Of a DNA stretch of 64,000 bases, positions 11,047 to 16,924 are shown one piece after another. Where the stretch lies: contig NZ_JADWYI010000001.1 in the NCBI RefSeq assembly GCF_016904885.1, positions 7,993,224 through 8,057,223 of the forward strand, read 5' to 3'. Origin of the DNA: Archangium primigenium. Lineage in GTDB: Bacteria; Myxococcota; Myxococcia; Myxococcales; Myxococcaceae. The notes beneath the pieces were generated by a model. That model had not been told where the DNA came from. It was given only the letters and a program-made list of their open reading frames with translations, and ran no database searches. Both the position numbers and the translations under genes were made by a program. The first letter of the stretch is position 1. Each line of letters begins with the position of its first letter.

Positions 11047-12645
11047 ATGTCACGACGCCCGCGCCTTGGAGCACTCGCCTCGATCGCCTTCGCCCTGAGC
11101 GCGGCGTGCGGGGTCGGCGTCGAGCGGCCCGAGGGTTGGTCCGAGGAGTCCCACGGCAAGAAGGCCGCTCCGGCCTATGACGTCGTGTTCCCCGCGAGCC
11201 GGGTGAACCGCTTCGACCTCGTCCTCACGCCGGAGGACTGGCGGGTGATGCAGGACGACATGACGGGCATGCTCGGCGCTTTCGGCGCGGGCGGCGGCGG
11301 CGCGCCAGGCGGTGGCGCGCCCGGGGGCGGCGGTGGCGCGCCCGCGGAGCTCACCCAGGCCTGCGAGGGCAAGGCCGCGGGCGACGCGTGCACCGCGACG
11401 TTCATGGGCAATACCTTCACCAGCACCTGTGCCCCGGGCCGCAATGGCGCTCCCCTGCTCTGCCAGCCGGCGCGCGGCGGCGGCGGCGGCCCCGGTGGAC
11501 CCGGCGGCGGGGGTCCGGGCGGAGGCGGCGGAGGCGGCGGGGACATCGTGCCCAACACGCCCGTCTACGTCCCCGCGACGTTCAAGTTCGAAGGGAAGAC
11601 CTGGCCCCAGGTCGGCGTGCGCATGAAGGGCAACTCGTCGCTCGGCGAGACCTGGCGCCGGGGCGTGGGCAAGCTGCCCCTGCGCCTGCACTTCGAGAAG
11701 TACAAGGAGGCGCACCCGGAGACGGACGGCCAGCGCTTCTACGGCTTCAAGAAGCTGTCGCTCGGCAACGGCGCGGCCGACACGTCGCTCATGCGCGACA
11801 AGGTCACCGCGGACGTGTACCGCGCGTTCGGCGTGCCCGCGCCGACCACCGGCTTCGTGGCCCTGTACGTGGACCATGGCGGGGGCCCCGAGTACTGGGG
11901 CCTGTACACACTGGACGAGGACGCGGACAACAACTCGCTGCTCGACCGGCACTTCGGCGACCATGACGGCCCGCTCTACGAGGCGGATGGCGTGGGCGCG
12001 CGCTGGCAGGCCTTCGACGAGGCCTCCTTCGCGCTCCAGAAGAACGAGGAGCAGGGCTGGGGCCCCGTGCAGGAGGCCATCGCCGCGCTCAACGCGGACC
12101 GCACCGATGCCGCCGCCTGGCGCGCGGGCCTCGAGGCCCGGCTGGACGTGCCGGGATTCCTGCGCTGGCTCGCCATCAACACCGTGATGCAGAACTGGGA
12201 CGCGTACGGCGGCATGGCGCACAACTATTACCTCTACGCCCACCCCCAGGAGGGCCACCGCCTGCACTGGATCTCCTGGGACCATGACCGCTCCATGGGC
12301 GAGGGCATGGGCCGCTCGACGTCCATCACCCAGGAGACCACGGATGCCAGCTGGCCCCTCATCCGCTTGCTGATGGATGATCCCACCTACGCCGCGCTCT
12401 ACCGGCAGTACCTGCTGGAGGCCGTGGACGGGCCGGCGAGCCCGGACGCGCTGCGCGCCCGCATCACCTCGGCGCGCGACACCATCGCCCCCTGGGCCGT
12501 GGGCGAGAACGCCGAGCGCACGGGCTTCACCTTCCTGAGCACGCCGGAGTCCTTCGAGACGGCGATCAGTGGAACCACTGGACTGTTGAACTTCGCGGCG
12601 AAGCGTCAGGCAGACGTCAAGACCGCGTTGGGAGTCACCCCATGA
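11047..12645 (+). CDS. CotH kinase family lipoprotein with Gly-rich inserts
   Basis: A 532-residue exported protein. The ATG at 11047 follows AGAGGA and starts the signal MSRRPRLGALASIAFALSAAC with lipobox SAAC. The CotH-family core begins at YDVVFPASRVNRFDLVLTPE and includes GVRMKGNSS, LMRDKVTADVYRAFGVPAP, the YWGLYTLDEDAD strand and the characteristic HWISWDHDRSMG segment, which carries the putative catalytic/Mg-binding Asp residues. Two Gly/Ala/Pro-rich stretches (about residues 79-100 and 144-165) interrupt the N-terminal part of the domain and flank a short Cys-containing segment. CotH proteins are atypical kinases that phosphorylate spore-coat proteins in Bacillus; substrates in other bacteria are mostly unknown. 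It is the first gene of a five-gene operon and overlaps the VTC gene by four bases (ATGA). Confidence 0.88.
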   Translation: MSRRPRLGALASIAFALSAACGVGVERPEGWSEESHGKKAAPAYDVVFPASRVNRFDLVLTPEDWRVMQDDMTGMLGAFGAGGGGAPGGGAPGGGGGAPAELTQACEGKAAGDACTATFMGNTFTSTCAPGRNGAPLLCQPARGGGGGPGGPGGGGPGGGGGGGGDIVPNTPVYVPATFKFEGKTWPQVGVRMKGNSSLGETWRRGVGKLPLRLHFEKYKEAHPETDGQRFYGFKKLSLGNGAADTSLMRDKVTADVYRAFGVPAPTTGFVALYVDHGGGPEYWGLYTLDEDADNNSLLDRHFGDHDGPLYEADGVGARWQAFDEASFALQKNEEQGWGPVQEAIAALNADRTDAAAWRAGLEARLDVPGFLRWLAINTVMQNWDAYGGMAHNYYLYAHPQEGHRLHWISWDHDRSMGEGMGRSTSITQETTDASWPLIRLLMDDPTYAALYRQYLLEAVDGPASPDALRARITSARDTIAPWAVGENAERTGFTFLSTPESFETAISGTTGLLNFAAKRQADVKTALGVTP

Positions 12646-13400
12646 GTGCCGCGGCCCGCATGAATCCCCCCTCTCCCGCCCCCGTGTCGCAAGACCGCGA
12701 GCGGCGCTTCCTGCCCTCGCGCGAGGCCCTGGAGACCTTCCTGCGGGCCGCCGCCTCCTGGACCAAGCCCTGCGTGTACGACAGCGGGCTGCCCTTCGCC
12801 TTCACCCGGACGACCTACTTCGACACCGAGCGGCTCGACTTCCTCGACTCGTGCCGGCACGGACACACGCAGCGGCTGCGGCTGCGCGAGTACGCGGGCA
12901 CGGCGGACCTGGCCCAGCCCGCGGTGCTCACCGGCACGCGCTACCTGGAGCTCAAGACGAACCGGGGCGAGCAGCGCACCAAGGTGCGCGTGCCCATCAC
13001 CTCGGACGAGGCCTCGGCGCTGCTCGGTGGCGCGGAGCCGCCCGCGAGCGGCGCCGCGGCGCGGCTGCTGCGCGACAGTCCCCATGGCCCGGTGCGGCCG
13101 TGGGTGATGGCGTGGTACCGGCGGGGCACGCTCGCCAACGCCGACGCCAGCGTGCGCATCACCGTGGACGAGGACCTGGTCTTCGCCCTGCCCCCGCGCG
13201 ACAGCCAGCTGGGCGTGCCCGCGGCGCCCACGCGGCTCATCCAGCAAGCCCCCGCCACGCTCGTGGAGGTCAAGGGGTGGGGCCCCCAGCCGTCCTGGCT
13301 GGAGGAGGCGTTGCGAACGTTGGAAGCCTTCGAGACCCATGACTCGAAGTTCGAACAAGGCATGCGCGCGCTGCTCGATGGCGTGCCCGCCGTGAAGTGA
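12642..13400 (+). CDS. VTC domain protein (putative polyphosphate polymerase domain)
   Basis: A 252-residue cytosolic protein matching the VTC domain, a tunnel fold that in yeast Vtc4 makes polyphosphate from ATP. Visible features are the entry segment RERRFLPSREALETFL, the strand TTYFDTERLDFL, the basic strand QRLRLREYAG, the acidic/basic pair YLELKTNRGEQRTKVRV and the final LVEVKGWG strand with the late Glu and Lys. These alternating charged strands line the tunnel in characterised members. Bacterial VTC proteins are commonly found next to CotH and DUF4956 genes, as here. Whether this one makes polyphosphate or another polymer is unproven. Its start overlaps the CotH stop and its stop overlaps a possible start of the porin gene, so translation is likely coupled. 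Confidence 0.85.
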   Translation: MSAAARMNPPSPAPVSQDRERRFLPSREALETFLRAAASWTKPCVYDSGLPFAFTRTTYFDTERLDFLDSCRHGHTQRLRLREYAGTADLAQPAVLTGTRYLELKTNRGEQRTKVRVPITSDEASALLGGAEPPASGAAARLLRDSPHGPVRPWVMAWYRRGTLANADASVRITVDEDLVFALPPRDSQLGVPAAPTRLIQQAPATLVEVKGWGPQPSWLEEALRTLEAFETHDSKFEQGMRALLDGVPAVK

Positions 13401-16263: not shown

Positions 16264-16924
16264 GCTGGTGGCCCAGGCCGCCGCCACGGTGAGCCCGCAG
16301 GCCCTGGACATCCAGGCGGCGCTCCTGCGCTTCAGCCTCGCGCTGGTGCTCGGCGCGGTGCTCGCCTACCGGCCCTGGCGCCGGTTCATGCCCTCCGCGC
16401 CGGCCATGCCGCAGGAGACCGCGCACACGCAGTTGCTCATCGCCGTGGCGGGCGCGGTGATGACCACGGTCATCGGCGACAGCATGTCGCGCGCCTTCGG
16501 CCTCGTGGGGCTCGGCGGCTTCATCCGCTTCCGCTCGGGCATCAAGGACACGCGTGACGCGGCCGTCATGTTCGTGCTCATCGGCGTGGGCATGTCCTGC
16601 GGGCTCGGCGCCTTCCAGGTGGCCGCGTGCGCCACGGGCTTCCTCGGCGCGGTGCTCATCGTCCTGGACCTCACGGCACAGCCCCGGCCCAACTGGATCA
16701 AGCTGTCCCTGGACGTGGAGAACCTGCGCGAGGCCCTGCCCCCGCTCCGGGCGCTCCACCCCGAGGCGCGCATGCTCACGCTCGAGCAGGAGGCGCCGAC
16801 GACGCAGGCGGGCACCGCCGTCTTCGAGCTCGCCATGCCCCCGCGCATGGATGGACTGCAACTGCTGGAGGGGCTGCGCACCGCCCTGCCCGGCGTGCGC
16901 AGCGCCTCCATCGATCCGAGCTGA
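16250..16924 (+). CDS. DUF4956 membrane protein
   Basis: A 224-residue protein. The first ~140 residues hold about four membrane helices, among them LLRFSLALVLGAVLAY and TAVMFVLIGVGMSCGLGAFQ-like segments, with the conserved loop FGLVGLGGFIRFRSGIKDTRDAA between helices, which is the hallmark of DUF4956 (it recalls the MgtC pattern of a GxxRFRSxIKD loop). The last ~80 residues form a soluble domain that may bind a ligand or partner. DUF4956 genes are regularly found with VTC and CotH genes, suggesting a shared pathway at the inner membrane, possibly transport or anchoring for polyphosphate handling. The ATG at 16250 is preferred over the adjacent GTG at 16247 because GGGAGG is then six bases away. 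Confidence 0.82.
   Translation: MPPPELVAQAAATVSPQALDIQAALLRFSLALVLGAVLAYRPWRRFMPSAPAMPQETAHTQLLIAVAGAVMTTVIGDSMSRAFGLVGLGGFIRFRSGIKDTRDAAVMFVLIGVGMSCGLGAFQVAACATGFLGAVLIVLDLTAQPRPNWIKLSLDVENLREALPPLRALHPEARMLTLEQEAPTTQAGTAVFELAMPPRMDGLQLLEGLRTALPGVRSASIDPS

What the first reader, a model, noticed from the sequence alone, without database searches (positions are those of the whole stretch)
11047..16924. Five-gene coupled operon: CotH kinase, VTC protein, porin, repeat-fused dTMP-kinase-like protein, DUF4956
The genes are packed with overlapping or very close start/stop codons. CotH, VTC and DUF4956 are a known association of unclear function; here they share an operon with an OprO/P-like porin and a P-loop kinase carrying a long repeat domain. 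A single system could take up or release a phosphate polymer, make or sense it in the cytosol (VTC), anchor it at the membrane (DUF4956) and phosphorylate an envelope protein (CotH). The pathway is inference; the gene order and motifs are seen.
Basis: partly seen in the sequence, partly recalled or inferred. Interest (0 to 1): 0.8.

Follow-up and report, generated by a model that had tools for sequence, protein, structure and literature searches.

The report
Phosphate-starvation polyphosphate operon of myxobacteria
Five overlapping genes in a soil myxobacterium form a conserved unit that appears to be switched on by phosphate starvation and to make or handle polyphosphate across the cell envelope; it includes a previously undescribed kinase-like protein whose long repeat domain carries one unchanging arginine in every repeat.

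Summary
CotH lipoprotein, VTC, Porin_O_P-type porin, a TMK-fold/solenoid protein ("TMKrep") and DUF4956 overlap end to end (11047-16924). Each of the five genes is found at 20 of 22 related module-A loci, the flanking genes at none. A paralogous module (porin-VTC-TMKrep-DUF4956) occurs in most related genomes; TMKrep sits beside VTC at about 93 of 97 loci, and in a Planctomycetota MAG. So porin and kinase-repeat genes are conserved partners. New here: (1) about 110 bp upstream lies a tandem of 11-nt repeats, conserved at 21/21 module-A loci; in the same genome it also precedes phoB-phoR-pst-phoU, two DUF47 phosphate-transport genes and a second CotH: a Pho box. (2) TMKrep keeps P-loop, DR and LID arginine but lost the dTMP-recognition Arg/Tyr/Gln in 43/43; a separate normal tmk exists. 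Its solenoid carries one invariant Arg per ~27-aa repeat. (3) VTC keeps the Vtc4 catalytic residues. Best reading: a Pho-regulated envelope polyphosphate module. Direction of flow and the roles of CotH and TMKrep remain inference.

The parts
10925..10962 (+). Pho-box-like promoter element: four tandem 11-nt units GTAAATATTTC/GTCACAAACGT/GTAAACAAAGG/GTCAC
   Evidence: found at 21/21 module-A loci, 82-129 bp before CotH; same element before phoB-phoR-pst, two DUF47 genes and a second CotH in the own genome
11047..12645 (+). CotH-family kinase, exported lipoprotein (lipobox LSAAC), Gly-rich insert; module A only
   Evidence: PF08757 1.6e-57; match to CotH structure 5jd9/5jda 8e-12 with NWD..NYYLY and WDHD motifs aligned
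12642..13400 (+). VTC (triphosphate-tunnel) domain protein, soluble, no SPX and no TM part
   Evidence: PF09359 1.2e-16; family profile hits Vtc4 3g3q 1e-15; R82, E209, K211, S235, K236 invariant in 38 sequences
13397..14581 (+). outer-membrane porin, Porin_O_P type, signal peptide, C-terminal F
   Evidence: PF07396 35.2 bits over cut-off 20.9; conserved partner
14581..15225 (+). TMKrep, N-terminal thymidylate-kinase-fold domain without dTMP-recognition residues
   Evidence: AF2 model, Z 25 to 4edh; residue comparison with 73 canonical Tmk
15277..16215 (+). TMKrep, C-terminal alpha-solenoid of ~27-aa repeats with one invariant Arg per repeat
   Evidence: no Pfam or PDB sequence match
16250..16924 (+). 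DUF4956 membrane protein: MgtC-like TM helices plus C-terminal ACT-like domain
   Evidence: PF16316 34.0 bits; AF2 model with TM helices and a beta-alpha-beta-beta-alpha-beta C-terminal domain; weak ACT-like Foldseek hits

Best explanation
A phosphate-starvation (Pho) regulated polyphosphate module that spans the envelope. SHOWN by sequence: the five genes overlap end to end and are kept together as a unit; a tandem 11-nt repeat upstream is shared with the genome's pho/pst and DUF47 genes; VTC keeps the catalytic residues of the yeast polyphosphate polymerase Vtc4; TMKrep is a thymidylate-kinase-fold protein that has lost dTMP recognition and carries an arginine-per-repeat solenoid. INFERRED: a PhoB-type regulator turns the operon on when phosphate is short; the porin lets phosphate, pyrophosphate or short polyphosphate cross the outer membrane; VTC, working at the inner membrane with DUF4956 (which supplies the membrane part that yeast VTC carries itself), polymerises ATP gamma-phosphate into polyphosphate so that scarce phosphate is trapped; TMKrep binds polyphosphate along its arginine-lined solenoid and acts on it as a kinase or regulator (PPK2, a true polyphosphate kinase, has the same overall fold); and in module A the exported CotH lipoprotein carries out a phosphotransfer outside the inner membrane.
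For: Unit: five genes 20/22 each, flanks 0/22; TMKrep beside VTC at about 93 of 97 loci in 75 genomes; in two genomes the operon is split, but all five parts are retained (G108: L073+L075; G083: L087+L088). Linkage reaches a Planctomycetota MAG (VTC-TMKrep, 35% identity) and a Myxococcales MAG where a Na/Pi cotransporter stands between VTC and TMKrep with PHO4/PiT and DUF47 close by. Pho box: 21/21; the own-genome pattern scan finds, without mismatch, the window site and one 90 bp before a second CotH divergent to DUF47, and with one mismatch sites about 60 bp before the phoB-phoR-pstS-pstC-pstA-pstB-phoU cluster and before a DUF47 gene next to PiT; PHO boxes are defined as 11-nt direct repeats (PMC4415409). 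Vtc4 R264/R266/E426 (mutated to inactivate the enzyme, PMC9911596) correspond to R, R82 and E209. TMKrep residues; arginine ladder; PPK2 related to thymidylate kinase (PMC3163519, PMC3680246).
Against: No activity, transcript or polyphosphate datum exists. The Pho box is a sequence match, not a footprint; module B of the own genome (L062) shows no such element, and only about 14 of 31 module-B promoters score above shuffles. Making polyphosphate during phosphate starvation looks paradoxical for a bacterium. The invariant arginines could be structural. In Gram-positives the CotH-VTC-DUF4956 trio sits in polysaccharide clusters, and no phenotype is reported there for the VTC deletion. The porin has no PDB sequence match.
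Confidence: 0.5

Rival explanations
1. A surface-polymer modification module: CotH phosphorylates (or otherwise modifies) an exopolysaccharide or envelope protein, VTC/DUF4956/TMKrep feed or regulate it, as in the Gram-positive Pel clusters; the porin is its exit.
For: CotH, polyphosphate-polymerase (VTC) and DUF4956 genes lie beside pelDEADAFG in streptococci, clostridia and bifidobacteria (PMC7112168); deletions of the CotH and DUF4956 genes change Pel amount and aggregation in S. intermedius (PMC12345266).
Against: No conserved gene of any kind flanks the module among those tested (0/22); CotH is missing from the module-B operon; the promoter element is shared with phosphate-transport genes; a Na/Pi cotransporter stands in the L126 operon.
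Confidence: 0.2
2. A phosphate or Mg sensing module: DUF4956 (MgtC-like TM plus ACT domain) and TMKrep are regulators that sense nucleotides or phosphate and set VTC activity, the way SPX domains do in yeast; polyphosphate is only the signal sink.
For: ACT-like domain in the DUF4956 model; an MgtC-like ORF in the own genome beside PiT/DUF47 (L257, by eye); TMKrep keeps a nucleotide-binding P-loop and lost its old substrate site; this VTC lacks SPX.
Against: No sensing datum; catalytic DR and LID Arg of the kinase domain are kept, which suggests phosphotransfer rather than pure sensing.
Confidence: 0.2
3. TMKrep is an ordinary dTMP kinase and the cluster is a nucleotide-salvage operon.
For: It passes the TIGR00041 equivalog cut-off (87.3 versus 83.25 bits).
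Against: dTMP-site Arg, Tyr and Gln, present in 72-73 of 73 canonical enzymes, are absent in 43 of 43 TMKrep; a canonical Tmk (147.6 bits) is encoded elsewhere; no other thymidine gene is linked.
Confidence: 0.03
4. Chance or hitch-hiking operon of unrelated genes.
For: Bacterial genomes are dense and operons do pick up unrelated genes.
Against: Two paralogous modules with different gene order keep the same four partners; split operons retain all parts; flanks not conserved.
Confidence: 0.01

Closest known systems
CotH - polyphosphate polymerase (VTC) - DUF4956 accessory genes of Gram-positive pel clusters (PMC7112168, PMC12345266)
   Same: the trio CotH, VTC-domain protein and DUF4956 (MgtC-like TM plus ACT) next to each other
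   Different: no pel genes in the module; two extra core partners (porin, TMKrep); CotH dispensable in module B; Pho-box promoter
Yeast VTC complex (Vtc4 polyphosphate polymerase)
   Same: TTM/VTC catalytic domain with the ATP and polyphosphate tunnel residues, including positions of R264, R266 and E426
   Different: no SPX domain and no own TM segment; DUF4956 and TMKrep instead; bacterial operon with porin and CotH
Thymidylate kinase (TIGR00041/PF02223)
   Same: fold (Z 25 to 4edh), P-loop, DR motif, LID Arg
   Different: lost dTMP-recognition Arg/Tyr/Gln; 330-residue Arg-ladder solenoid; extra conserved SRKGLAGAG motif in the LID region
PPK2 polyphosphate kinases
   Same: P-loop kinase fold related to thymidylate kinase; polyphosphate context
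   Different: no PF03976 match; P-loop and motifs are TMK-like, not PPK2-like
OprO/OprP phosphate/pyrophosphate porins
   Same: Porin_O_P Pfam family
   Different: weak match over part of the profile (residues 88-195); no sequence hit to solved OprO/OprP chains

Membership tests
CotH kinase (PF08757) | family profile over cut-off | tested here: met
   195.9 bits versus 23.8
CotH kinase (PF08757) | catalytic Asp motifs aligned with the solved CotH | tested here: met
   NWDAYGGMAHNYYLY and WDHDRSMG align with 5jd9; W411 and D412 invariant in 16 relatives
CotH kinase (PF08757) | kinase activity and substrate | not testable with these tools
   needs biochemistry
Vtc4 polyphosphate polymerase | VTC/TTM domain | tested here: met
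   PF09359 61.5 bits; profile to 3g3q 1e-15
Vtc4 polyphosphate polymerase | catalytic tunnel residues R264, R266, E426 | tested here: met
   R (type A) or K (type B), R82 and E209 at these columns; the latter two invariant in 38 sequences (role from PMC9911596)
Vtc4 polyphosphate polymerase | SPX domain and own transmembrane part | tested here: not met
   252 aa, VTC domain only; so filed as a VTC-domain protein, not as a VTC-complex subunit
dTMP kinase (Tmk) | family profile and fold | tested here: met
   87.3 versus 83.25 bits; Z 25.3
dTMP kinase (Tmk) | dTMP-recognition Arg, Tyr and Gln | tested here: not met
   0 of 43 TMKrep, 72-73 of 73 canonical Tmk
PPK2 (PF03976) | family profile | tested here: not met
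   not among Pfam matches up to E 1
DUF4956 (PF16316) | family profile over cut-off | tested here: met
   34.0 versus 30.6 bits
MgtC (PF02308) | family profile over cut-off | tested here: not met
   22.2 versus 31.4 bits
Porin_O_P (PF07396) | family profile over cut-off | tested here: met
   35.2 versus 20.9 bits
Porin_O_P (PF07396) | phosphate or pyrophosphate selectivity | not testable with these tools
   no PDB sequence hit; needs a conductance assay
Pho regulon member | tandem 11-nt direct repeats in the promoter shared with pho/pst genes | tested here: met
Pho regulon member | phosphate-dependent transcription | not testable with these tools
   no expression data
pel accessory cluster | adjacent pel biosynthesis genes | tested here: inconclusive
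   flanks of the window module are not conserved; the flanks of the other loci were not annotated gene by gene

The most novel reading that the evidence does not exclude
VTC and DUF4956 make and export polyphosphate as the phosphate donor for phosphotransferases that work where there is no ATP: the exported CotH lipoprotein here, the secreted CotH of Gram-positive pel clusters, and perhaps the exported PPDK_N lipoprotein beside TMKrep in a Kofleriaceae MAG. TMKrep would be a polyphosphate-dependent kinase that grips the chain along its arginine ladder. This would explain why CotH, VTC and DUF4956 travel together across phyla.
Probability: 0.13. Interest if true: 0.88.

Novelty: new variant of a known kind. 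Interest (0 to 1): 0.6.

Why it matters
The function of the CotH-VTC-DUF4956 association is an open question. A conserved operon that adds an outer-membrane porin and a new kinase-solenoid family, and that carries a Pho box, puts the question into a testable frame: phosphate starvation, polyphosphate assay, gene deletion in myxobacteria. If VTC makes polyphosphate here, bacteria would have a PPK-independent and membrane-coupled route to it, and TMKrep would be a new polyphosphate-linked protein family.

Tried and rejected
Phylum-wide search with the TMKrep alignment failed twice on the server; replaced by a single-protein search. The genome-contigs scan mostly returned ordinary Tmk after the first seven loci, since its pattern was the P-loop. 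Strict pattern GTVAC x3 gave no hit in the own genome; the looser GTVAM pattern did; so the element's pattern was chosen after seeing the window and its relatives, and the test in other promoters of the own genome is the independent part. The 529-aa protein upstream of VTC in the Planctomycetota locus looks like a signal-bearing beta-barrel with C-terminal F, but profile comparison with the porin family gave nothing, so it is not claimed as a homologue. PDB search with the DUF4956 and porin profiles gave no relatives. No Rfam family, sigma-70 promoter or intrinsic terminator by consensus. The Foldseek/VIA lists are filled by the TMK domain, so the solenoid's fold was not tested against known folds. 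Dismissed: dTMP kinase as function, chance clustering.
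Full report
OBSERVATION. The five ORFs are present on the + strand exactly as described. CotH starts at 11047 with a lipoprotein signal (LSAAC); VTC starts inside the CotH stop (ATGA, 12642), the porin inside the VTC stop (GTGA, 13397), TMKrep overlaps the porin stop by one base (ATG 14581), and DUF4956 starts 14 nt before the TMKrep stop (ATG 16250; stop at 16924). Family assignments hold over Pfam cut-offs for all five, DUF4956 only just (34.0 versus 30.6 bits). No terminator or sigma-70 promoter match was found in the region.

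CONSERVATION. In 145 genomes of the order, TMKrep (full repeat-bearing form) occurs at about 97 loci in 75 genomes; by coordinates and by annotation VTC lies beside it at about 93 (counted by reading the tables). There are two paralogous modules. Module A (window type, TMKrep 62-77% identical, 22 genomes): CotH-VTC-porin-TMKrep-DUF4956 in one order, seen complete in the window and 18 fetched loci. Module B (TMKrep about 40% identical to the window's; nearly all genomes of the family that have any TMKrep, and genomes of another family of the order): porin-VTC-TMKrep-DUF4956 without CotH in the operon; in L098, L099, L100 and L120 a divergent CotH lies 1-2 kb away. The own genome has both modules and no other VTC or DUF4956 gene, but 11 CotH genes. 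In two genomes module A is broken into two pieces on different contigs, in two different ways, and all parts are kept (L073/L075, L087/L088). Genes flanking the window module (MenA-type prenyltransferase, hydrolase 16965-17531, gene 17606-18010) are found at 0 of 22 module-A loci, the five genes at 20 of 22 each.

OUTSIDE THE ORDER. A Planctomycetota MAG (L127) has VTC directly followed by TMKrep at 35% identity over the full length; a Myxococcales MAG (L126) has VTC - Na/Pi cotransporter - TMKrep with a PHO4/PiT transporter and DUF47 4-5 kb away; a Kofleriaceae MAG (L125) has an exported PPDK_N-domain lipoprotein - TMKrep - porin and no VTC seen.

PROMOTER. Aligning the regions before CotH at 21 module-A loci shows one conserved block, consensus TATTTCGTCACAAACGCGTAACGAACAGGTCACGA, 82-129 bp before the start codon. 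It is a tandem of 11-nt units beginning GTMAM; in the window there are four such units (10925-10962). PHO boxes are defined as 11-nt direct repeats (PMC4415409). In the own genome the pattern GTVAM-N6-GTVAM-N6-GTVAM has no-mismatch hits at the window and at C1:6810002, 90 bp before a second CotH lipoprotein (71% identical to the window's) that is divergent to a DUF47 gene; the same intergenic region holds a second copy facing the DUF47 gene. With one mismatch it has hits about 60 bp before a cluster of response regulator - histidine kinase - metallophosphatase - response regulator - PstS - PstC - PstA - PstB - PhoU, after phoU, and before another DUF47 gene beside PiT and an MgtC-like ORF (the PstA and PstB names rest and on reading the ORFs). 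The remaining hits of that scan, about half of them, lie at places with no evident phosphate gene, and the backward control pattern gives 14 hits against 28, so the pattern alone is not specific; the argument rests on which promoters the best hits fall in. In the own-genome DNA in hand, 20 positions score at least 11.5 against 2.8 after block shuffling. About 14 of 31 module-B promoters carry a GTSAC version above shuffles; the own genome's module B does not. I take this as good evidence that module A belongs to the Pho regulon; binding and induction are not shown.

PROTEINS. VTC: a soluble 252-aa protein with only the tunnel domain. A profile of 38 relatives hits yeast Vtc4 (1e-15) well ahead of Vtc2/Vtc3. 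Vtc4 R264, R266 and E426, which were mutated together to impair the enzyme (PMC9911596), correspond to R/K, R82 (invariant) and E209 (invariant); K428, S457 and K458 to invariant K211, S235 and K236 (residue mapping by counting along the printed alignment). Polyphosphate synthesis is therefore plausible. TMKrep: AlphaFold2 model with pLDDT 91, residues 1-215 a complete thymidylate-kinase fold (Z 25.3 to 4edh, 2.1 A over 205 residues), then a long alpha-solenoid. Against 73 canonical Tmk, all 43 TMKrep keep the P-loop and DR motif (and 42 the LID Arg) but have D/E in place of the invariant Arg after the LLLF.A motif, and mostly L and A/S/T in place of the near-invariant Tyr-Gln after the DR motif (that these positions contact dTMP is established knowledge of Tmk structures). 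The genome has a normal tmk elsewhere. The solenoid has no Pfam or PDB sequence relative. Eight consecutive repeats have an Arg at the same place of the first helix in 43 of 43 sequences with one exception (R298, R327, R354, R381, R419, R446, R473, R499), more conserved than any core hydrophobic position. A ladder for a polyanion such as polyphosphate is the attractive reading; a structural ladder, as HEAT repeats have, is the sober alternative, and I could not inspect coordinates. DUF4956: membrane helices and an ACT-like end, as also described for the streptococcal relative (PMC12345266). Porin: Porin_O_P by Pfam only.

MECHANISM. Best-supported: a Pho-controlled polyphosphate module (statement and evidence in Best explanation). 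Shown: gene set, linkage, promoter element, residue patterns. Inferred: enzyme activities, direction of flow, partners. PPK2 polyphosphate kinases resemble thymidylate kinase (PMC3163519, PMC3680246), which makes polyphosphate a natural candidate substrate for a Tmk-fold protein that has lost dTMP recognition, but TMKrep does not match the PPK2 profile.

KNOWN OR NEW. The trio CotH-VTC-DUF4956 is known from Gram-positive pel clusters, where two of the three genes affect Pel and aggregation (PMC7112168, PMC12345266); those authors report not finding the trio in this arrangement outside pel loci. The held literature gave no paper on TMKrep or on this operon. New here: the porin and TMKrep as core partners, the Pho-box link, the loss of dTMP recognition and the arginine-per-repeat solenoid. 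I rate it a new variant of a known association.

Noticed in passing
L256:6241-8715 (own genome C1:6.809-6.812 Mb): A second CotH lipoprotein, 71% identical to the window's, stands divergent to a DUF47 (PiT-accessory) gene with a Pho-box-like element facing each gene.
   Followed up: yes
L257:6445-10103 (own genome C1:1.754-1.758 Mb): Cluster of two DUF47-type genes, a PiT-type transporter and an MgtC-like ORF, with a Pho-box-like element before one DUF47 gene; MgtC is the nearest named relative of DUF4956.
   Followed up: partly
L265:4501-12659 (own genome C1:7.0925-7.1007 Mb): pho-pst-phoU cluster with two response regulators and a metallophosphatase.
   Followed up: partly
L125:4357-8156: Kofleriaceae MAG: an exported lipoprotein with a PPDK_N (ATP-grasp phosphotransferase) domain precedes TMKrep and a porin, where module A has CotH.
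   Followed up: partly
L116, L117, L118, L119: VTC-DUF4956 pairs without TMKrep or porin in two other genera; these VTC proteins score higher on the Pfam model (about 100 bits).
   Followed up: no
L073/L075 and L087/L088: Module A split into two unlinked pieces in two genomes, in two different ways, all five parts kept.
   Followed up: partly
own genome: Eleven CotH-family genes in one genome, only one in a VTC operon.
   Followed up: no
window 16933-16962: GC-rich hairpin (CTCCGGGAC..GTCCCGGAG) just after the DUF4956 stop, without a T run, overlapping the start of the next gene.
   Followed up: no
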